A DNA stretch of 64,000 nt from Bacteroidales bacterium (GTDB lineage: Bacteria; Bacteroidota; Bacteroidia; Bacteroidales; Muribaculaceae), in NCBI GenBank assembly GCA_910575545.1, contig CAJTFH010000007.1, positions 1-64,000 on the forward strand, in the 5' to 3' direction. Each line of letters opens with the position of its first letter. Positions within the stretch are counted from its first letter, which is position 1. This document shows, piece by piece, positions 8,161 to 51,373 of the stretch. Under the pieces are notes generated by a model, which searched no databases, was not told where the DNA came from, and worked only from the letters and a program-made list of their open reading frames with translations. The position numbers were made by a program, and so were the translations under genes.

Positions 8161-8724
8161 ATGGCGCAAAGTTTCGAAGATTGGATTCTCAATGGTGACC
8201 ACAAGGTTTTTTCAGCGGTTTACGATGAATACTGGAAGAAGGTTCTTCGGTTTGCGCGCCTGTATATAAGCGATCCGTATGAGCAGGAGGAGGTGGTGCA
8301 GGAGGCTTTCATCAAGCTTTGGGAGAAGCGCGGAGATATAGATCTTGACGGCAATATCGACGGGTTGCTTTTCATAATAACGCGCAATCTGATTTTCAAC
8401 CGTCACCGACGCTCGCTGCATGAGAACGAACTCATGGCCGATCTGGCCCATGTGGTCGAGGAGGAGTATGATATCGAAAGTCAGATTGATGCCGACAATC
8501 TGCGCGAATATATCGAGACGCTTGTGACTGTGTTGCCGCCACGACAGCGTGAGGCGTTCCTGCTGAGCCGTTATGAGCACCTGAATGTGAAGGAGATCGC
8601 CATGCGGATGAATATTTCAGAGCGCGGCGTTGAGCGCAACATTTATTTGGCGCTTAAGTTTTTGCGGCGCCATTTGCCGTTGTTTATTGTTTTCGAGGCG
8701 TGTGTCGAGAGTAATGTTCCATAA
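8161..8724 (+). CDS. ECF RNA polymerase sigma factor (PUL-type, FecI-like)
   Basis: The 187-residue protein has a region 2 (FSAVYDEYWKKVLRFARLYI, then EEVVQEAFIKLWEKR) and a region 4 (LPPRQREAFLLSRYEHLNVK, EIAMRMNISERGVERNIYLA). This is the standard sigma-70 ECF architecture of Bacteroides PUL regulators. Such factors bind core RNA polymerase and transcribe a susC/susD operon when a FecR anti-sigma factor releases them. The expected FecR partner is present, but 36 kb away at 45057, because a Mu-like prophage lies between. A strong terminator follows the gene. Confidence 0.93.
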   Translation: MAQSFEDWILNGDHKVFSAVYDEYWKKVLRFARLYISDPYEQEEVVQEAFIKLWEKRGDIDLDGNIDGLLFIITRNLIFNRHRRSLHENELMADLAHVVEEEYDIESQIDADNLREYIETLVTVLPPRQREAFLLSRYEHLNVKEIAMRMNISERGVERNIYLALKFLRRHLPLFIVFEACVESNVP

Positions 8725-19949: not shown

Positions 19950-20804
19950 TCAGACGGCATCGACGGCAGGGAGGCCGGGTGAGGTGAACAGCATTATGTC
20001 CGTATACCTGGCATTGTAGTTCATGGTCGCGTTAAACTCCATGCGGCTGCAACGCTCGAAAGGATTGCCGAGCGACGGGTTGCGGCCCATCCACTCGCAC
20101 AGCTCCACGAGGCACGATTTCTCGGAAGTGAAATAAACAAAGTTATGGCCTGACAGCACCGACAGCACATCGAGGTAATCTGCGAGCCGCCAGTACATGC
20201 GGTATGTGCCCACGTCGGTAGACAGATAAGGCGGGTCTACGAGGAACACCACGCCGGGCACATCCTTGAACCGCTCGAACAGTTCCCGGTAGTCGCACGA
20301 TTCAATTTCCAGTCCGGCGAGATACTCCGGGCATTCGGCATATCCTGCCTTGCGCACATTGTTGTAGAGCGTTTCCTTGCGCATCTCCGGGATGCTCATC
20401 TTATACTTCATCGAGAACATCAGCGAGGAGGACAGGGTGATGAAGTCGAGATAGCCGGTTTCCCGTTCTTCCTGCTCAAGCAGGGCGAATATACGCTCCC
20501 TTGCCGCTCCTGTTATGGGCCTGTGTCGCCCGAAACCGTCGGATATAGGTCTGATACGGTCGAGCAGGGCATTGGTGCGAGGAATATTGGCTATGCGCAG
20601 CCGGTAGTCGTCGAAATCATTGTATATGACCCGGGAATCGGGATGGGTGTGCTTGGTGATGTGTGACAACAGCCCCGAGCCACCGAAAAGATCCACAAAC
20701 ACAGTGCCGGCCGGATATTGCTTTATCACTTCGATGAAGTGTTTGGCGAACATACGCTTCTGCCCGACGAAGGGCAAGGGAGCGGATAGATAGAGGCGGC
20801 TCAT
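19950..20804 (-). CDS. D12-class DNA adenine N6-methyltransferase
   Basis: The 284-residue protein has the motifs of the Dam/D12 class in order: PFVGQKR (12-17), VDLFGGSG (37-44, SAM binding) and VDPPYLS (catalytic DPPY at 190-193). It would methylate adenine N6 using SAM. Phages carry such enzymes to evade restriction or to control transcription (Mu itself depends on Dam for mom). No restriction partner is present. Its start overlaps the stop of the ThyA-like gene (20801-20804), so the two are translationally coupled and probably act on the same DNA. Confidence 0.9.
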   Translation of the reverse strand: MSRLYLSAPLPFVGQKRMFAKHFIEVIKQYPAGTVFVDLFGGSGLLSHITKHTHPDSRVIYNDFDDYRLRIANIPRTNALLDRIRPISDGFGRHRPITGAARERIFALLEQEERETGYLDFITLSSSLMFSMKYKMSIPEMRKETLYNNVRKAGYAECPEYLAGLEIESCDYRELFERFKDVPGVVFLVDPPYLSTDVGTYRMYWRLADYLDVLSVLSGHNFVYFTSEKSCLVELCEWMGRNPSLGNPFERCSRMEFNATMNYNARYTDIMLFTSPGLPAVDAV

Positions 20805-21445
20805 ACGTTCAGTTCGAATTTGACGCTGTCCTCTCCGGCGAGAAGTCGGCGGGTGTTGTCGATATTGTTGTCATACACATGCACGTTGCCAAGGAACAGT
20901 GTTATTGACTTGAGGGGGAAGTCGATGTTCCGGGCCATGAGGTAGAGGTGGTATATGTCGGCCGGCAGTCCGAGGTTGGCGTCGGAGCTGCGCTGGTAGG
21001 CGGACACCACCAGTTCGCCGTCCTCGATCTGGAACTGAACGAGTGACAGGCATGGGGCCTGGTTGCTCTCTGCCTCGGTCGCTCCGAGGAACAATACATA
21101 GTTCTTTGACGGGCGACGCTCGGTATTGATCCTGGCGAGCAGCGGCGGGAGCTTCTCGAAATAGGTGGGGTAGGAGTTGACCAGGATCGAACCGCAGTAG
21201 TCCCACCAGTTTATGCCGGCCTCGCGGTACTTCTCCACAGAGCGCTCGCCGCTCATGAAGAGCCTCAGCTCGGAGCGGAGCTTCTTGCGGGCCAGTCCGT
21301 GTCCCTCGAAAATTTCAAGCAGATCGGCCGGGGTAAGTGAGAGCTGCTCATTGATAAGGTAGGTTATATTGCCCTTCTTGTTGACCTGGTGCCTGCCGTT
21401 GTCAAGAATCCTGGCGAGGATTTGGTGATATTTGTTGCGTGCCAT
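20801..21445 (-). CDS. ThyA-family enzyme, predicted dCMP hydroxymethylase-like
   Basis: ATG 21445 gives 214 residues that align along most of thymidylate synthase. The N-terminal helix ends in GINWWDYCG (matching the ThyA IWDEW region), the nucleophile is Cys132 in APCLSLVQF, and phosphate-binding YQRSSDANLGLP and VHVYDNN (His189, Tyr191) are present. In E. coli ThyA the residue 31 positions after the nucleophile is Asn177, which selects dUMP; here it is Asp163 (LPADIY). Asp at this place defines T4 dCMP hydroxymethylase and MilA-type CMP enzymes. So the product likely makes 5-hydroxymethyl- or 5-methyl-dCMP. The C-terminus is about 45 residues shorter than ThyA. An upstream non-ATG start (21472) is less likely. 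Confidence 0.8.
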   Translation of the reverse strand: MARNKYHQILARILDNGRHQVNKKGNITYLINEQLSLTPADLLEIFEGHGLARKKLRSELRLFMSGERSVEKYREAGINWWDYCGSILVNSYPTYFEKLPPLLARINTERRPSKNYVLFLGATEAESNQAPCLSLVQFQIEDGELVVSAYQRSSDANLGLPADIYHLYLMARNIDFPLKSITLFLGNVHVYDNNIDNTRRLLAGEDSVKFELNV

Positions 21446-21515: not shown

Positions 21516-21788
21516 TCACACTGCACGCGGATTGCAGTCATTCTTTGCCAGGCAAATCGGCAGAGCCGATGACTGGAAACGCTTTATCAGGCTGTATACC
21601 TTCCTCTCGCTCACGCCATATTTGTCGGCCAGAACCGCCACCGCATACGACACCTTGTCGCCGGCACCGACCATGTTGTTGAAGTCAACATAGAGGTCGA
21701 TGTAGGCGGTGTCCTCGAGCCTTACGCCAATGCGGCGCAGTCTTTCGAGCAGTTCGCGGTTGAAATTCAGCACTTCAAATATTGTCAT
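21516..21788 (-). CDS. Small HTH protein, candidate late regulator
   Basis: The 90-residue protein has a helical N-terminus and a clear helix-turn-helix at KVSYAVAVLADKYGVSERKV followed by YSLIKRF. Similar small proteins occur widely in Bacteroidales prophages. By position (before the packaging block) it could play the part of Mu Mor or C, which switch on late genes. AAAATT-GCT-AATTTT (21796-21810) lies just before its start and may be an operator. Confidence 0.65.
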   Translation of the reverse strand: MTIFEVLNFNRELLERLRRIGVRLEDTAYIDLYVDFNNMVGAGDKVSYAVAVLADKYGVSERKVYSLIKRFQSSALPICLAKNDCNPRAV

Positions 21789-21795
21789 GTCGGCG

Positions 21796-21811
21796 AAAAT
21801 TGCTAATTTTG
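21796..21811 (+). promoter_or_regulatory. Plus-strand promoter overlapping a dyad
   Basis: TAATTTTG (21804-21811) fits TAnnTTTG, with ATTG 19 bases upstream (21781-21784) in the -33 position. It overlaps the perfect dyad AAAATTGCTAATTTT (21796-21810). Transcription would start near 21816, exactly at the outer stem of the RNA candidate that follows. Confidence 0.6.
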
Positions 21812-21815
21812 CAGT

Positions 21816-21942
21816 GTCTCACTTATTCAAATAAACACCGTATCACGGGCCGGGAAGGCATTTGCCCCCGGCGGCCCGTGATACGGTGTTTGTTGTTAAA
21901 GAGTAAGTGAGACGACTATTTAACAGGCCGGGGGCATTTTTT
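21816..21942 (+). ncRNA. Structured noncoding RNA candidate with pseudoknot-type terminator
   Basis: A plus-strand promoter places the start near 21816. The outer stem GTCTCACTTATTC (21816-21828) pairs with GAGTAAGTGAGAC (21901-21913) with one G-U. Inside it a perfect 20-bp stem joins 21833-21852 (AAACACCGTATCACGGGCCG) to 21872-21891. The loop segment TGCCCCCGGC (21863-21872) pairs with GCCGGGGGCA (21927-21936), which is followed by TTTTTT (21937-21942). So the terminator arm lies in the loop of the inner stem, forming a pseudoknot or a switch between two folds. About 126 nucleotides, antisense to no gene; it lies between two minus-strand operons. No known family is recognised. Confidence 0.6.
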
Positions 21943-45056: not shown

Positions 45057-45932
45057 ATGCTGAAATCATTATGGGATAAACCGACCGCAGATTATCAAGT
45101 GGCCGATGAGGCCGAAACCAAAGACCGTATCTGGCATGGTATTGTCAGCGAGATATATCGCCGAACCCATCGCCGCCGCATGCTGACAAGGAGCATCGGT
45201 GTTGCCGCATGCGTGGCCTGTGTCATGGCAGCCGCCGTGTGGATGTGGCGCCCGATGCCCGGCGATGCGGGTTTGCCGGCAGAGCAGACCTGCCTGATGG
45301 CCGACAGTCTGGAGAAGCTGTGTCTTCCCGACAGCACGGTGGTATGGCTTGAGAGGGGAAGCGTGCTGACTTTCGACAGCGGATTCATGGCAGACCGCTG
45401 TGTGAGTCTCAAGGGAAACGCCACCTTCGAGGTTGCGAAAGTCGACGGCAAACGGTTTGTGGTAAGACTTGATGATTCAGAGATAGTGGTAAAGGGAACC
45501 TGTTTTTCGATTCAGGAGAATGAGGTGATAAATGTGACACTATATAACGGGTCGGTTGAGTTCGTGTCGGGCCATGGCAACGACACGATTGAACTGAAGC
45601 CGTCGCAAAGGCTCACTTATGTGCCCGGCAGTGGCGACATTGCGGTGAGAAGCATCACAGAGAACCTGCGGTGGGAGAACGGAGCCTACAAGCTGTCGCA
45701 GATAGAGCTGTCCGAGCTTGTCGACTTTATGGAAGGTCATTATGATGTTGAGATCGCCATTGCGGAGAATCTTCGTGCCGACAAGTTGCGGATGACCGGT
45801 ACATTACGTTATGACGAGCCTCTTGATTCTATGCTGCAACGCATATGCTATGTGTTCAAGCTCGGGTGGACGCGTGAGGGCGACCGCTATATGCTTGCAG
45901 AGAAGGGGAGTCATGATCGCCATGCCGACTAA
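45057..45932 (+). CDS. FecR-type anti-sigma factor
   Basis: From ATG 45057 the 291-residue protein has a short cytoplasmic part (SLWDKPTADYQVADEAETKD), one membrane helix near 46-64 (SIGVAACVACVMAAAVWMW) and a periplasmic FecR domain (CLPDSTVVWLERGSVLTFDS; ATFEVAKVDGKRFVVRLDDS). A DUF4974-type end (DEPLDSMLQRICYVFKLGW) interacts with the STN domain of the transporter. Its sigma partner is at 8161-8724. The frame is open 24 codons upstream of this Met into the prophage end, so the true host N-terminus may have been cut. Confidence 0.9.
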   Translation: MLKSLWDKPTADYQVADEAETKDRIWHGIVSEIYRRTHRRRMLTRSIGVAACVACVMAAAVWMWRPMPGDAGLPAEQTCLMADSLEKLCLPDSTVVWLERGSVLTFDSGFMADRCVSLKGNATFEVAKVDGKRFVVRLDDSEIVVKGTCFSIQENEVINVTLYNGSVEFVSGHGNDTIELKPSQRLTYVPGSGDIAVRSITENLRWENGAYKLSQIELSELVDFMEGHYDVEIAIAENLRADKLRMTGTLRYDEPLDSMLQRICYVFKLGWTREGDRYMLAEKGSHDRHAD

Positions 45933-46009
45933 TCGCCTGGTTTTATGTTGCCATCATTATCAATCTGATATAAAACTGTTTATTAATTATTAACCTAATC
46001 ATTAACCTA

Positions 46010-49000
46010 ATGAATCTAATTCCTATATTCCGGCTGATAACGCTCAGAAACGCGGCAGTGGCTTTAGCGCTTGCCATTACGGGCGCAGTCGATGCATCGG
46101 GACAGATTACGGTGAAGGGTAGCGGCATGAATATTCTTGATGCCATCAAGCTGATAGAAAAAGACAGCGGCTACACCTTCTACTTCAATGCCGATGATCT
46201 CAGTGGGCTACCGGCTCTGACGTTCAATTGCTCGGGCGACATAAACAAAGTGCTTGACTGCATGTTTGCCGGCTCGGGCATAGACTGGCAGGTGCGTGGC
46301 AATGAGGTGAGTCTCACCAAAAAAGCCAATGTGTCAAAAAACGAAACGGTTAGAAAGCGCATGGTGAGCGGCACAGTGCTCGACGGTAGCAACGACGAAC
46401 CGCTTATAGGGGCTGTTGTCAATGTAAAAGACACAAAAACCAATGTGGCCACCGATATCGACGGGCATTTCGATGTGTCGTTTACCGGCAACAGCTGCAC
46501 TCTTGAAATTTCATATGTGGGCTATGCCAAACAGAGCGTGTATATCACCGACCAGGGAACGGTGGCTGTGAAGATGCAGCCTGCCAACGAGATGCTGGGC
46601 GAGGTTGTGGTTGTGGGCGCGGGCACGCAGAAAAAGATTTCTGTGACCGGAGCCATCGCCACGGTGAAAGGCGCCGAGTTCCGCGCTCCGTCGTCGAACC
46701 TTACCAACAACCTTGCCGGAAAACTTGCCGGTGTGATTGCCGTGACCAACAGCGGCGAACCCGGCAGCGGTTCGAGTTTCTATATCCGAGGCATCAACAC
46801 CTTCGGCGGTCGCACGGCACCCCTTATTCTTTTGGACGGAGTGGAGATTTCGGCTAATGACCTCAACAATATCCCGCCTGAGAACATCGAAAGTTTCTCG
46901 ATCCTGAAAGACGCTTCGGCCACGGCGATCTACGGGGCACGCGGTGCAAACGGCGTGATGCTCGTAACCACCAAAAACGGTGAGGAAAACACCAAGGCGC
47001 GCATTTCGGTAACCTACGAGCACTCGCTGCTCCAGCCGGTCAACATGGTGGAGTATGTCGACGGCGCCACTTATATGGAAACCTATAACGAGGCCCAGCG
47101 GATGCGACTGGGAGATGTGACCCCGAAATATTCTTGGGAACGCATCGACAACACCCGTGCGGGAATCAACCAGTATCTTTATCCCGATGTGGACTGGCGC
47201 GGCCTGATGATGAAGAAGTTGACGCAGAGCCAGCGCGCCAATGTCAACATCACCGGCGGCGGTTCGAGGGTGACATACTACATGTCGCTGCAGATGAACC
47301 ACGACAGCGGTGCGCTCGATGTGCCGAAAAACTATTCGCTCAACAACAACCACAACCTGTGGCGCTATATATTCCAGAACAATATCGAGTATAAGGTGAC
47401 TTCGTCGACCAAGCTGGGTATGCGCATCAACGCCCAGATTGCCCATCAGACCTCGCCTAACACATCTTCGTCGGAAATCTTCCAGCAGGTGCAGTATAAC
47501 AATCCGGTTGACTATCCGGCGGTGTATCCCGACGACGGGAGCGGCCATCTGAAATTCGGTTCCGACATCATCTCGTCAGGATCATATTTCACCAACCCAT
47601 ATGCCAACATGCTCAACTCGTTCAAGGAGGCGAATGAGAACAAGCTCAACGTGTCGGTCAACCTTGACCAGAAACTCGATTTCGTGACCAAAGGTTTGTC
47701 GCTGACGGCGCTTGTGAATTTCAACAGCTGGTATTATTCATCATACACCCGCTCGCTGAAACCTTATTATTACCGTGTGCTCCCCGGAAGCTATAACCCT
47801 GCCGCCGACACCTATGCTCTCGAGCAACTACAGAAAGGTGAGGATTTCATCAACGAGTCGAGCATCTACAAAACCGGCGACAACCTGTTTTATTTTGATG
47901 CCCGCGTGAACTACAACCGTACCTTCGGCCCCCACTCCGTGACCGGTATGCTGATGTATATGATGCGCGAGAACCGCACCAACATTCTTCCCAGCCGCAA
48001 CCAGGGTTTCTCAGGACGTGCCACATATGACTATGACCACCGTTATCTGGTGGAGTTCAACTTCGGCTATAACGGCACCGAGCGTCTGGCAAAGGATGAC
48101 CGTTTTGAGTTTTTCCCTGCCGCCTCGATCGGATGGGTGATCAGCAACGAGACATTCTGGGAGCCGCTAAACCGCATCGTCACCCACATGAAGGTGCGTA
48201 GCTCGTATGGTCTTGTAGGATCGGACGAGACAGGCGTGAATGCCGGTGCTCCATATTACATGTACAAGTATGGCGTGGCCCTTTACGGAAAAGACCAGTT
48301 TGGACGTACGTTCTTCAAGACCGGTCAGACCCCGTCGAATGCATTCGAGGGTTCAGGGCCTGAGATTACGGATTATCCGGTTGTGAACGGTTCGTGGGAA
48401 AGGTCGAAACAGTTCGACGTCGGTGTGGATCTGCGTCTGTTTGACCAGGTTGCCATAACCTTCGATTACTTCAACTATAAGCGCGACCGTATTCTGCTTC
48501 AACGCGCATCGTTCCCCTCGATTATGGGTTACCAAGGTGTGAAGCCGTGGGTGAATATGGGTAAGGTCGACAACCGAGGTTTCGAACTTAGCGTGAACTG
48601 GATAAAACGCCTGACAAAAGACCTGTCGATAGACCTGCGCGGCAACTTCACATATGCCGAGAACAAGCTGGTCTATAAGGATGAGCCGGATTATCCCTAC
48701 ACATGGCAGGTAGAGACCGGCAAGCCGCTCGGAGCCACCTACGGCTTCATAGCCGACGGCCTATTCAAAGACCAGGCCGACATCGACAACCATGCCGACC
48801 AGAGCTTTTTCGGGTCCACGGTGATGCCTGGCGATATAAAGTACCGCGATGTCAACGGTGACGGCAAGATAAGCAGCGAAGACCGTGTGATGCTCTCGCC
48901 CTACGGCAACCAGCCGCGAATCCAATATGGTTTCGGTGTGAGCGTGCAGTGGCGCGATTTCGACCTGAGCGTGTTCTTCAACGGATCGGCGCAGCGCCGC

Positions 49001-49372
49001 ATAATGCTTGACCCGGCGCAGTTGCAGCCCTTCAACCAGATGTGGACTGCCGACCGCAACCTGATGACTTGGATTGCCGACAACCACTGGGTCGAGGGTG
49101 GCGACAACAGCAACGTTGAATGGCCTCGTCTGGGCACCTTGCAGGCCCAGTATGAGAACAACCTCAATGCAAGCTCATTCTGGATGAAGAAAGCCGATTT
49201 CATACGCTTCAAGACACTTGAGGTCGGGTATAACTGGAAGTTCCTGCGTGTATATTTCAGCGGTGACAACCTGGCAGTGTGGTCGCCGTTCAAGTACTGG
49301 GATCCGGAGCTTGACTACAACACCTATCCGTTGAGCCGCACATTCAACCTCGGCGTGCAGTTCCATTTCTAA
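46010..49372 (+). CDS. SusC-like TonB-dependent transporter with STN signalling domain
   Basis: The 1120-residue protein has a signal peptide (to about ASGQ), an STN domain (about 33-95, ITVKGSGMNILDAIKLIEKD), a carboxypeptidase-regulatory-like domain (about 119-200, VSGTVLDGSNDEPLIGAVVN), a plug (SVTGAIATVKGAEFR, IYGARGANGVMLVTTKNGEE) and a barrel ending in TFNLGVQFHF. It imports glycan oligosaccharides across the outer membrane with its SusD lid. The STN domain means it also signals to the FecR protein next door. Confidence 0.95.
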   Translation: MNLIPIFRLITLRNAAVALALAITGAVDASGQITVKGSGMNILDAIKLIEKDSGYTFYFNADDLSGLPALTFNCSGDINKVLDCMFAGSGIDWQVRGNEVSLTKKANVSKNETVRKRMVSGTVLDGSNDEPLIGAVVNVKDTKTNVATDIDGHFDVSFTGNSCTLEISYVGYAKQSVYITDQGTVAVKMQPANEMLGEVVVVGAGTQKKISVTGAIATVKGAEFRAPSSNLTNNLAGKLAGVIAVTNSGEPGSGSSFYIRGINTFGGRTAPLILLDGVEISANDLNNIPPENIESFSILKDASATAIYGARGANGVMLVTTKNGEENTKARISVTYEHSLLQPVNMVEYVDGATYMETYNEAQRMRLGDVTPKYSWERIDNTRAGINQYLYPDVDWRGLMMKKLTQSQRANVNITGGGSRVTYYMSLQMNHDSGALDVPKNYSLNNNHNLWRYIFQNNIEYKVTSSTKLGMRINAQIAHQTSPNTSSSEIFQQVQYNNPVDYPAVYPDDGSGHLKFGSDIISSGSYFTNPYANMLNSFKEANENKLNVSVNLDQKLDFVTKGLSLTALVNFNSWYYSSYTRSLKPYYYRVLPGSYNPAADTYALEQLQKGEDFINESSIYKTGDNLFYFDARVNYNRTFGPHSVTGMLMYMMRENRTNILPSRNQGFSGRATYDYDHRYLVEFNFGYNGTERLAKDDRFEFFPAASIGWVISNETFWEPLNRIVTHMKVRSSYGLVGSDETGVNAGAPYYMYKYGVALYGKDQFGRTFFKTGQTPSNAFEGSGPEITDYPVVNGSWERSKQFDVGVDLRLFDQVAITFDYFNYKRDRILLQRASFPSIMGYQGVKPWVNMGKVDNRGFELSVNWIKRLTKDLSIDLRGNFTYAENKLVYKDEPDYPYTWQVETGKPLGATYGFIADGLFKDQADIDNHADQSFFGSTVMPGDIKYRDVNGDGKISSEDRVMLSPYGNQPRIQYGFGVSVQWRDFDLSVFFNGSAQRRIMLDPAQLQPFNQMWTADRNLMTWIADNHWVEGGDNSNVEWPRLGTLQAQYENNLNASSFWMKKADFIRFKTLEVGYNWKFLRVYFSGDNLAVWSPFKYWDPELDYNTYPLSRTFNLGVQFHF

Positions 49373-49402
49373 GCAGAACCTATAAAATAATTACCGATAA
49401 CA

Positions 49403-51373
49403 ATGAACAAGCATATAAAAAACATTATAATGGCGTGGGGCACGGGCGTTTGCTTTCTGACCGGAGCGGCTTCGTGCGAGTATCTCGATGTTGTGCCGGT
49501 GGAGACCCCCGACCGCGACGACATGCTCACAGATCCGGCCAGCGCGCTGCGCTATCTCTACGGCTGCTACGGGCCGATCCAGAACGAAAAGACACAGAAA
49601 CAACGCTACAGCAACTATCATTTCGGCAGCGACGAGTTTGTGGAGTGTGTGAGCGTGTATGACGATTTCCGCCGTTTCCAGGGTGACCAGATCACCGGCC
49701 ACAATGCGGCGCAATATGGCGTGTGGAACGACTATATCAACGGAATCGGGTATTGCAACCAGTTTCTCAGCGACATAGCAACCTATGACGTGCCGAACCT
49801 CGACATCAACGACAAGACGCAGTATATAGCCGAGGCTAAATTCCTCAAGGCTTATTACCACTATATGCTGCTCAATTATTGCGGCCCTATACCTATCATG
49901 GATTCGCAGTTGCCGATGGATATGGAGAAGGGTGATCTGCCGGGCCGCTCGCATTTCGACGCAGTGGTGAAGTATATCGCGGGGTTGTGTAAGGAAGCAT
50001 ATCCCGACCTCCCGATAACCTATGGCGACGAGCGTTATTATGGCCGCGCCACCAAGTCGATATGCCGTATGCTTGAGGCTAAGGTGCGCGTGCTTGCCGC
50101 ATCCCCGCTTTGGAACGGTTCATTCCCCTGGCCCGGATGGGAGAATCAGAGCTATGAGACCCCGGGCTATGGCCGTGCTCTGGTGAGCAACAGCTATGAT
50201 GTGCAGAAATGGAAAGACGCCTATGATGCTTGCGAGGCTGCGATTCAAGAGGCGTTGAAAGCCGGGCATGACCTTATGCGCCTTGCCGATTCGGAGGCTA
50301 TCCGCGTCAACGACAAAATACCGTTGCCTGCAATTCCCGGCATTGACAATTCAACACCCGAGGGTGAGGAGTTTGCCAAACGGGTCATGCTGATGCGATA
50401 TGTGGTGACCGCACGCCCTAACCAAGGGAACCGTGAGTTCATATGGGCCTCGCTCGACTTGAATAACTATTGGGCCACATCGCCTGCATCGATTCCCCAC
50501 TTCGTGATGAATGATGAGAAAGGGGTGCCTGGAGGAGGATGGGGCATGATCAGTCCCACGCTCTATACAGTGGAACATTTCTACACCAAAAACGGCAAAC
50601 TGCCTATCGACGACATGGAGTTCCCCCGTGAGGATGAGTGGTTCACTTCGGCCGGGCTTGATAATCCCGACATCATCAAGCTGTGTGTAGGGCGCGAACC
50701 ACGTTTCTATGCCAATATCTCATTTGACGGCGACGAATATTCTCCGGTCATAGCGGGCGGCAATCGGTTAGTTGTCAAAGCCCGCGATTCGCAGCAGTGC
50801 GGTTACAACCCTGACCTGTTCGGACAGAACAACCAGAGCCAGACAGGCTTCTGGAACAAGAAGAATGTGCATCCCAATCTCCGTTACAGCAACCCGGGCA
50901 TGACCAACAACATAGGAGGCATAGAAAACCGGCCTAACAGCATTTTCCGACTGGCCGATCTTTATCTCATGACAGCCGAATGCTGTGCCTACCTCGGCGG
51001 CACTTATGTGGATGAGGGGCTTAAATGGCTCAATGAGGTGCGCGACCGCGCCGGTGTTGACAAACTCCAGGCAAAGGATGTCGCTGCCGACGGCTCTATG
51101 CTTAAAGCTGTGCTTTCCGAGCGGTTCATAGAGCTTTATTTCGAAGGAATGCGTCTGGAGGATATCCGCCGCAATGTGCAGGGTGCTCAGCGCATGAGCG
51201 GCAATTGCTACCGTGGCCTCAACTCAATGGTCAAAGACCCCTCGTTTGAGGAGTTCAACACTCCCCGACAGATCAAGCAGAGTCTGAAGTGGAGCAACCG
51301 CATGTATCTTCAGCCTATTCCAGATGATGAGGTCTATGCCAATCCGCAACTCATCCAGGCTCCCGGATATTAA
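49403..51373 (+). CDS. SusD-like surface glycan-binding lipoprotein
   Basis: The 656-residue protein has a lipobox (LTGAASC, Cys25) and the RagB/SusD helical TPR-type plan (LRYLYGCYGPIQNEK; YIAEAKFLKAYYHYMLLNYC; RLADLYLMTAECCAYLGGTY; FIELYFEGMRLEDIRR). It caps the SusC barrel and binds the glycan. It follows SusC by 30 bases in one operon and is somewhat longer than the usual 520-600 residues. Confidence 0.95.
   Translation: MNKHIKNIIMAWGTGVCFLTGAASCEYLDVVPVETPDRDDMLTDPASALRYLYGCYGPIQNEKTQKQRYSNYHFGSDEFVECVSVYDDFRRFQGDQITGHNAAQYGVWNDYINGIGYCNQFLSDIATYDVPNLDINDKTQYIAEAKFLKAYYHYMLLNYCGPIPIMDSQLPMDMEKGDLPGRSHFDAVVKYIAGLCKEAYPDLPITYGDERYYGRATKSICRMLEAKVRVLAASPLWNGSFPWPGWENQSYETPGYGRALVSNSYDVQKWKDAYDACEAAIQEALKAGHDLMRLADSEAIRVNDKIPLPAIPGIDNSTPEGEEFAKRVMLMRYVVTARPNQGNREFIWASLDLNNYWATSPASIPHFVMNDEKGVPGGGWGMISPTLYTVEHFYTKNGKLPIDDMEFPREDEWFTSAGLDNPDIIKLCVGREPRFYANISFDGDEYSPVIAGGNRLVVKARDSQQCGYNPDLFGQNNQSQTGFWNKKNVHPNLRYSNPGMTNNIGGIENRPNSIFRLADLYLMTAECCAYLGGTYVDEGLKWLNEVRDRAGVDKLQAKDVAADGSMLKAVLSERFIELYFEGMRLEDIRRNVQGAQRMSGNCYRGLNSMVKDPSFEEFNTPRQIKQSLKWSNRMYLQPIPDDEVYANPQLIQAPGY

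What the first reader, a model, noticed from the sequence alone, without database searches (positions are those of the whole stretch)
20801..21445. ThyA-like enzyme with Asp in place of Asn177: predicted dCMP-modifying enzyme in a temperate phage
All catalytic landmarks of thymidylate synthase are present (Cys132, RSSD, HVY), with the same 20- and 11-residue spacings as E. coli ThyA, but the pyrimidine-selecting residue is Asp163. In T4 gp42 and MilA an Asp here means cytosine substrate. It is coupled by a 4-base overlap to a DNA adenine methylase, so the phage may modify both C and A. I do not know of such a pair described in Bacteroidales Mu-like phages.
Basis: partly seen in the sequence, partly recalled or inferred. 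Interest (0 to 1): 0.8.

Follow-up and report, generated by a model that had tools for sequence, protein, structure and literature searches.

The report
Phage cytosine-nucleotide methylase paired with DNA methylase
A gut-bacterial prophage carries a small cousin of thymidylate synthase that is probably retuned to add a methyl (or hydroxymethyl) group to a cytosine nucleotide instead of making thymine, and it usually sits next to a DNA methylase gene, which suggests that a widespread kind of gut phage chemically marks its DNA.

Summary
In detail: window 20801-21445 (-) encodes a 214-aa thymidylate-synthase (TS) homologue with Asp163 at the Asn177 position, overlapping a D12-class DNA methylase by ATGA. 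Asp163 is invariant in 122 of 122 distinct relatives, which form a discrete clade seen in Bacteroidales genomes and phage contigs, hankyphage included. A methylase homologue is adjacent in 142 of 164 loci, 90 downstream and 52 upstream, so pairing survived rearrangement; 22 lack it. The hydroxymethylase Asp (three residues before the Cys) is Gln in all 122, and profile comparison sides with TS (116) and another Asp177 family (121), not with T4-type enzymes (42). Best reading: a compact dCMP C5-methylase in a counter-restriction cassette (0.47). Against it: the phosphate arginines are altered, the general-base Tyr94 is not clearly kept, no dCTP-removing enzyme or kinase was found in the phage proteins scanned, and one relative has a glycosyltransferase next to the TS gene, which would suit a hydroxymethyl product. 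No activity was tested and no structure was modelled. New variant of a known kind.

The parts
20801..21445 (-). TS-family protein, 214 aa, Asp163 at the Asn177 position; predicted dCMP C5-methylase
19950..20804 (-). D12-class (N6-adenine type) DNA methyltransferase, 284 aa, DPPY motif; overlaps the TS gene by ATGA
   Evidence: PF02086 39.5 bits; phrog_56; DPPY in 136 of 136 full-length relatives, 3 of which have a stop inside; adjacency
21516..21788 (-). 90-aa HTH protein, weakly Mor-like, upstream of the TS gene on the same strand
   Evidence: phrog_17790 (unknown function) E=6.8e-31, PF08765 Mor E=8e-4 below cut-off; its cluster lies upstream of the TS gene in 124 of 160 loci

Best explanation
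The gene encodes a compact TS-fold enzyme that uses methylene-tetrahydrofolate to put a one-carbon group, most likely methyl, on C5 of dCMP. Cys132 attacks C6, Glu59 helps to activate the folate and Asp163 selects cytosine; Tyr92 may stand in for the general base Tyr94 (placed by eye). The host seems to use dCMP deamination, with no dCTP deaminase found, so dCMP should be a normal pool metabolite. Host kinases would then raise part of the product to 5-methyl-dCTP, which is built into phage DNA during replication, while the D12 enzyme methylates adenines. Together they would mask phage DNA from restriction. Shown: sequence, invariant residues, pairing, host genes. Inferred: substrate, product, co-expression, phosphorylation, incorporation, protection.
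For: Asp163 in 122 of 122. Equivalents of C146, E58, W80, R166, S167, D169, H207 and Y209 are kept in 122 of 122. Gln, not Asp, three residues before the Cys; TS-like Pro161 (GLPAD) where T4 gp42 has Arg177; a tail-like end VKFELNV. hhalign 121 against the ETP Asp177 family, 116 against TS, 42 against hydroxymethylase-type proteins. The tree sets it with TS and ETP against T4 gp42 (99/97*). DLP4, a relative of the 5mC phage Xp12, also has Asp177 and an amide, Asn, at -3. Pairing with the methylase in two gene orders, with at least 2 changes of order on the tree (107 labelled of 122 rows). Host: a ComEB-like deaminase (below that model's cut-off; that ComEB is a dCMP deaminase is recalled), a dUTPase but no dCTP deaminase above cut-off, and a cytidylate kinase.
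Against: The two dimer-mate phosphate arginines of TS are replaced: Ser113-Lys114, or Lys114-Asn115 if aligned one off, in 122 of 122. The 'YG' of the general base Tyr94 has no aligned partner in the family: MAFFT puts a gap there. No dCTP pyrophosphatase, nucleotide kinase, DHFR or dCMP deaminase was seen in the 13 further phage proteins scanned (several small ORFs and the structural genes were not scanned), unlike DLP4. The hhalign alignments stop at residue 207 or before, so the tail homology rests on MAFFT alone. The family sits on a very long branch, the bootstrap had not settled, and the tree tool warns of a possibly false join. In L242 a glycosyltransferase gene directly precedes the TS gene, as hydroxymethyl chemistry would use. 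The TS gene occurs without the methylase in 13 loci with 400 or more bases on both sides, and 6 of 6 virus records of that kind hold no methylase at all.
Confidence: 0.47

Rival explanations
1. It is a dCMP hydroxymethylase of a new type: same substrate, but water ends the reaction and the product is 5-hydroxymethyl-dCMP.
For: Asp163 as in T4 gp42. The invariant N90-S91-Y92 recalls the N-S-N-Y of T4-type enzymes; the residue after the Cys is Leu, not His147, and T4-type enzymes also lack His there. In L242 a family-2 type glycosyltransferase (PF13704, 57.5 bits against 27.5) directly precedes the TS gene, though a homologue was found in 1 of 165 loci only (L242 itself) and it may act on other targets.
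Against: Gln129 instead of the Asp found in 64 of 64 hydroxymethylase-type proteins; T4 D145N is dead (PMC6400193 section 18). Tail-like end; no T4-type Arg177; profile score 42 against 116-121.
Confidence: 0.23
2. The product feeds thymidylate synthesis: 5-methyl-dCMP is deaminated by the host dCMP deaminase straight to dTMP, bypassing dUMP.
For: The host has a ComEB-like deaminase and no dCTP deaminase above cut-off.
Against: Does not explain the link to a DNA methylase. The host has its own canonical ThyA.
Confidence: 0.1
3. The substrate is not a free mononucleotide monophosphate: the enzyme works on cytosine in another molecule, possibly in DNA held by its methylase partner.
For: Re-modelled phosphate site in 122 of 122, no nucleotide kinase seen, usual pairing with a DNA-binding enzyme.
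Against: No TS-fold enzyme known to me acts on DNA; Arg166 and Ser167 equivalents and a basic residue at R21 are kept; some TS genes stand without the methylase.
Confidence: 0.1
4. It is an ordinary thymidylate synthase for dUMP that helps phage replication.
For: TS fold and catalytic set; annotated so in public records.
Against: Invariant Asp at the residue that selects uracil as Asn; Asn in 26 of 26 TS compared from Bacteroidales genomes. The host has its own ThyA.
Confidence: 0.06

Closest known systems
Thymidylate synthase ThyA (PF00303)
   Same: Family, Cys, Glu58, Trp80, RSxD, His-x-Tyr, a possible closing C-terminal tail; profile score 116
   Different: Asp for Asn177, Leu for His147, Gln for Leu143, phosphate arginines altered, Tyr94 not clearly kept, about 50 residues shorter through deletions
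T4 gp42 dCMP hydroxymethylase and kin
   Same: Asp at position 177; catalytic set; phage-borne
   Different: No Asp three residues before Cys; tail-like end present; no Arg177; profile score 42
TS-like enzymes of the Xp12 lineage (here DLP4) and of Edwardsiella phage ETP-1/KF-1
   Same: Asp177; no Asp at -3; ends such as KIGFELYE in the ETP family resemble VKFELNV
   Different: Those phages carry their own DNA polymerase; DLP4 adds dCMP deaminase, DHFR and a nucleotide pyrophosphohydrolase. The activity of these proteins was not established by anything I read.
MilA CMP hydroxymethylase
   Same: Asp186 equivalent; possibly Lys at the first phosphate Arg
   Different: Ser153, not Ala176, so deoxyribose is expected (PMC5175136 passages)

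Membership tests
TS superfamily (PF00303) | Profile match above curated cut-off with catalytic Cys | tested here: met
   70.7 bits against 24.3; Cys132 in 122 of 122
Thymidylate synthase sensu stricto | Asn177 for uracil | tested here: not met
   Asp in 122 of 122; Asn in 26 of 26 TS compared
T4-type dCMP hydroxymethylase | Asp (or Glu) three residues before the Cys | tested here: not met
   Gln in 122 of 122; Asp in 64 of 64 of the reference set
T4-type dCMP hydroxymethylase | Ser-x-Tyr water site (Ser94, Tyr96) | tested here: inconclusive
   N90-S91-Y92 invariant but Ser directly precedes Tyr, and MAFFT leaves a gap at Tyr96; loop alignment uncertain
T4-type dCMP hydroxymethylase | No TS C-terminal tail | tested here: inconclusive
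   Conserved end with F210 and N213 invariant, aligned to the TS tail by MAFFT; hhalign does not reach it
dCMP C5-methylase (TS with Asp177) | Asp177 with TS-type surroundings, no Asp at -3 | tested here: met
   sequence features only
dCMP C5-methylase (TS with Asp177) | General base Tyr94 and phosphate arginines R126, R127 | tested here: not met
   Tyr94 column is a gap in the family (Tyr92 proposed by eye); Ser113-Lys114 or Lys114-Asn115 in place of the arginines
dCMP C5-methylase (TS with Asp177) | Makes 5-methyl-dCMP and dihydrofolate | not testable with these tools
   Needs an assay
dCMP C5-methylase (TS with Asp177) | Companion dCTP removal and kinase genes for full replacement (my own criterion, from DLP4 and recalled T4 biology) | tested here: not met
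   None seen in the 13 further phage proteins scanned, not all ORFs; DLP4 has a pyrophosphohydrolase, DHFR and deaminase
MilA-type CMP hydroxymethylase | Ala in place of Ser167 | tested here: not met
   Ser in 122 of 122
D12-class DNA adenine methylase (partner) | PF02086 above cut-off, DPPY | tested here: met
   39.5 bits against 22; DPPY in 136 of 136 full-length relatives

The most novel reading that the evidence does not exclude
The TS-like enzyme no longer uses free dCMP but methylates (or hydroxymethylates) cytosine within DNA, or on a carrier, in concert with the D12 methylase beside it: a folate-dependent DNA-level base modifier of TS fold. What leaves this open is the re-modelled phosphate pocket in every relative compared, the lack of kinase and dCTP-removing genes among the proteins scanned, and the usual nesting with a DNA methylase.
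Probability: 0.06. Interest if true: 0.9.

Novelty: new variant of a known kind. Interest (0 to 1): 0.52.

Why it matters
Hankyphage-like transposable phages are called widespread or globally ubiquitous in the titles of two papers (listing), and I found nothing that treats their DNA as modified. If this cassette marks both C and A, it could help such phages cross between hosts with different restriction systems, would affect sequencing and cloning of their DNA, and would be a temperate, transposing case of a strategy that, to my recollection, is best known from lytic phages. The family also offers a natural set to separate what decides substrate (position 177) from what decides product (position 143 and the tail) in TS-fold enzymes.

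Tried and rejected
The profile-based scan of viral contigs listed the best 80 of 286 relatives, nearly all the contigs already seen, and so no distant ones; the 295-genome search showed a gap between 356 and 56 bits. Column counts from MAFFT for '-3' were shifted for TS and ETP rows by a gap next to the Cys; I read them by counting back from the Cys instead (Leu in 26 of 26 TS; Leu 37 and Val 2 of 39 ETP). A first regular-expression count for the ETP family picked the wrong one of two adjacent Cys and was dropped. A methylase motif-I count of 0 came from a wrongly written pattern and is not used. Rejected: that the enzyme belongs to the diversity-generating retroelement (an ORF cluster that I take for its reverse transcriptase is in 99 of 160 loci; I saw none in the window ORF lists, by eye). 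Considered and left: restriction-site avoidance as a test, too confounded. One family locus (L080) has an in-frame stop near the start and was left out of the residue counts.

Full report
WHAT IS THERE. The minus-strand ORF 20801-21445 encodes 214 aa. It matches the TS family well above Pfam's cut-off (PF00303, 70.7 bits against 24.3, E=1.5e-19) and PHROG 160. The next gene, 19950-20804, is a D12-class methylase, and the two genes share ATGA at 20801-20804. A 90-aa helix-turn-helix gene, 21516-21788, precedes them on the same strand; it matches phrog_17790 (unknown function, E=6.8e-31) and only weakly Mor or late activators.

THE FAMILY. In phage records 200 matched, 23 of them in the 60-80% identity band; the 21 of these that were listed are at 77-80% (19 named Bacteroides phage, many p00, that is hankyphage; 2 'Bacteriophage sp.'), and the best listed of the others covers most of the protein at about 28%. 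Viral contigs gave 164 relatives and genome contigs 177, the best 80 kept each; 79 of the 80 genome titles carry names that I read as Bacteroidales, one is 'uncultured bacterium'. In 295 sampled genomes of the order, the window's own included, 5 carry the family at 356-428 bits and every other hit is at most 56 bits; the 25 of those others that I aligned have Asn177. So it is a discrete clade in what was sampled. Among 122 distinct proteins from 160 loci (L080, with an in-frame stop near its start, left out), 91 positions are invariant, including C132, E59, W81, R152, S153, D155, D163, H189 and Y191. dN/dS against six relatives is 0.01-0.13.

THE PAIRING. A D12 methylase homologue lies beside the TS gene on the same strand in 142 of 164 loci (80 viral, 80 genome, 4 others; near copies included): 90 downstream, 52 upstream; 37 of the 90 abut exactly as here. 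Of the 22 without it, 9 have under 400 bases on one side; the other 13 do not, and the 6 virus records among these hold no methylase anywhere. On a tree of the 122 proteins, 107 with a label, the up/down order needs at least 2 changes. The HTH cluster occurs upstream in 124 of 160 loci. For 80 loci chosen by their portal gene, 56 hold both the Mu F-like and the gp37/G-like gene: within the stretch fetched, 27 have TS and methylase, 6 the methylase alone, 23 neither, none TS alone. Searching the whole records of the last 29 raised this to 30 both, 7 methylase alone (one with a stop inside), 19 neither, none TS alone, of 56; records may be fragments, and in one of the three added ones the methylase is a partial match with a stop. 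In L306 the methylase directly follows the HTH gene with no TS gene between them; in L339-L341 HTH and methylase lie on the other strand. The loci are related, so these are not independent events. So in this lineage the TS gene looks like an add-on to an HTH-methylase cassette, while elsewhere it can stand alone. In Bacteroides clarus (L103; the same ORFs in L038) an ABC-type ATPase-GNAT fusion and a formyltransferase-like protein follow the TS gene instead; a likeness to Mom-type adenine modification is my recollection, not a test. In L242 a glycosyltransferase (PF13704) and in L080 a DUF6734 protein directly precede the TS gene; neither has a homologue in the other 164 of 165 loci searched.

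SUBSTRATE. Position 177 selects uracil (Asn) or cytosine (Asp), and Asp is the usual residue in contigs with modified cytosine (PMC8670742 section 11 read; PMC5175136 passages). Asn is found in 26 of 26 TS compared here, Asp in 64 of 64 hydroxymethylase-type and 38 of 39 ETP-type proteins. Ser153 matches the deoxyribose enzymes, not MilA's Ala176. The host appears to run dCMP deamination: a ComEB-like deaminase (E=6.8e-25, below that model's cut-off) and a dUTPase, but no dCTP deaminase above cut-off of the one model tried; a cytidylate kinase is present. dCMP should therefore exist in this host.

PRODUCT. T4 gp42 needs Asp145, three residues before the Cys, and lacks the TS tail (PMC6400193 sections 18 and 20 read, passages of others). 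Here that place is Gln in 122 of 122, and the end of the protein is conserved (F210, N213 in 122 of 122) and aligned with the TS tail by MAFFT. T4's Arg177 is Pro161 here. hhalign scores: 121 (E=3e-18) against the ETP family, 116 (E=2e-17) against TS, 42 (E=1e-5) against hydroxymethylase-type proteins. The tree agrees (99/97*), with a long-branch warning and an unsettled bootstrap. DLP4, a relative of Xp12, whose cytosines are all replaced by 5-methylcytosine (as stated in PMC9206674, passages), has Asp177 and Asn at the -3 place. I therefore favour methyl over hydroxymethyl by about two to one; the glycosyltransferase of L242 pulls the other way.

WHAT DOES NOT FIT. The first dimer-mate phosphate Arg is aligned as Arg in TS (26 of 26), ETP (39 of 39) and hydroxymethylase-type proteins (64 of 64) but as Ser113, or Lys114 if moved by one, in 122 of 122 here. 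The Tyr94-Gly motif of TS and T4 gp42 faces a gap; Tyr92 is my proposal by eye. No kinase or dCTP-removing gene was seen among 13 further phage proteins scanned (one ATPase has a sub-threshold thymidylate-kinase match but its best match is phrog_6891 ATPase); not all ORFs were scanned. Complete replacement of cytosine is thus unlikely; partial labelling is the realistic expectation.

LITERATURE. BK010646 (hankyphage p00) already annotates the pair at its right end. The main texts of two hankyphage papers do not contain the word thymidylate, and the later one mentions the methyltransferase only as a name for the genome end. Searches for TS with Bacteroides phage and DNA methyltransferase, or with dCMP hydroxymethylase and Bacteroides, gave no paper in the open library. 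PMC10367356 places hankyphage in a proposed family (passages).

VERDICT. The sequence observation is right; the cytosine inference is likely right; the T4-like hydroxymethylase picture is not favoured but not excluded. It is a compact, deeply diverged Asp177 TS clade usually tied to a DNA methylase, here in a Mu-like Bacteroidales prophage: a new variant of a known kind, testable with simple biochemistry.

Noticed in passing
window 21811-21920: A very strong hairpin between the HTH gene and the end of the Mu F-like gene: arms 21830-21852/21872-21894 (23 nt, 96%) and outer arms 21816-21828/21901-21913; folding energy -64.3 kcal/mol, z -11.5. Possibly a terminator or a transcript boundary.
   Followed up: partly
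L103 6932-8498 (and L038): In Bacteroides clarus the TS gene is followed not by the D12 methylase but by an ABC-type ATPase fused to a GNAT-like domain and a formyltransferase-like protein: possibly a different base-modification module in the same place.
   Followed up: partly
L242 666-1484: A family-2 type glycosyltransferase gene (PF13704) ends about 10 bases before the TS gene, and no D12 methylase is adjacent; seen in this one locus of 165.
   Followed up: partly
L306 17102-17998, L315, L323, L339-L341: Relatives of this phage carry the HTH and methylase genes and no TS gene anywhere in their records; useful natural controls, though records may be fragments.
   Followed up: partly
window 8161-8724 and 45057-51373: The prophage lies between an ECF sigma-like gene and a FecR-like, SusC-like and SusD-like gene set (names by eye), so it may have split a polysaccharide-use regulon; the exact phage ends were not mapped.
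   Followed up: no
L269 3983-4777 and L356-L406: A second Asp177 TS-like family, in Edwardsiella phages ETP-1/KF-1 and 51 viral contigs, with a TS-like end and Leu (37 of 39) or Val at the -3 place, annotated in the phages as thymidylate synthase; a possible dCMP-methylase family.
   Followed up: partly
L272 1962-2894: Erwinia phage RF1 'thymidylate synthase' also has Asp at position 177 (LPHD) with Leu at -3.
   Followed up: no
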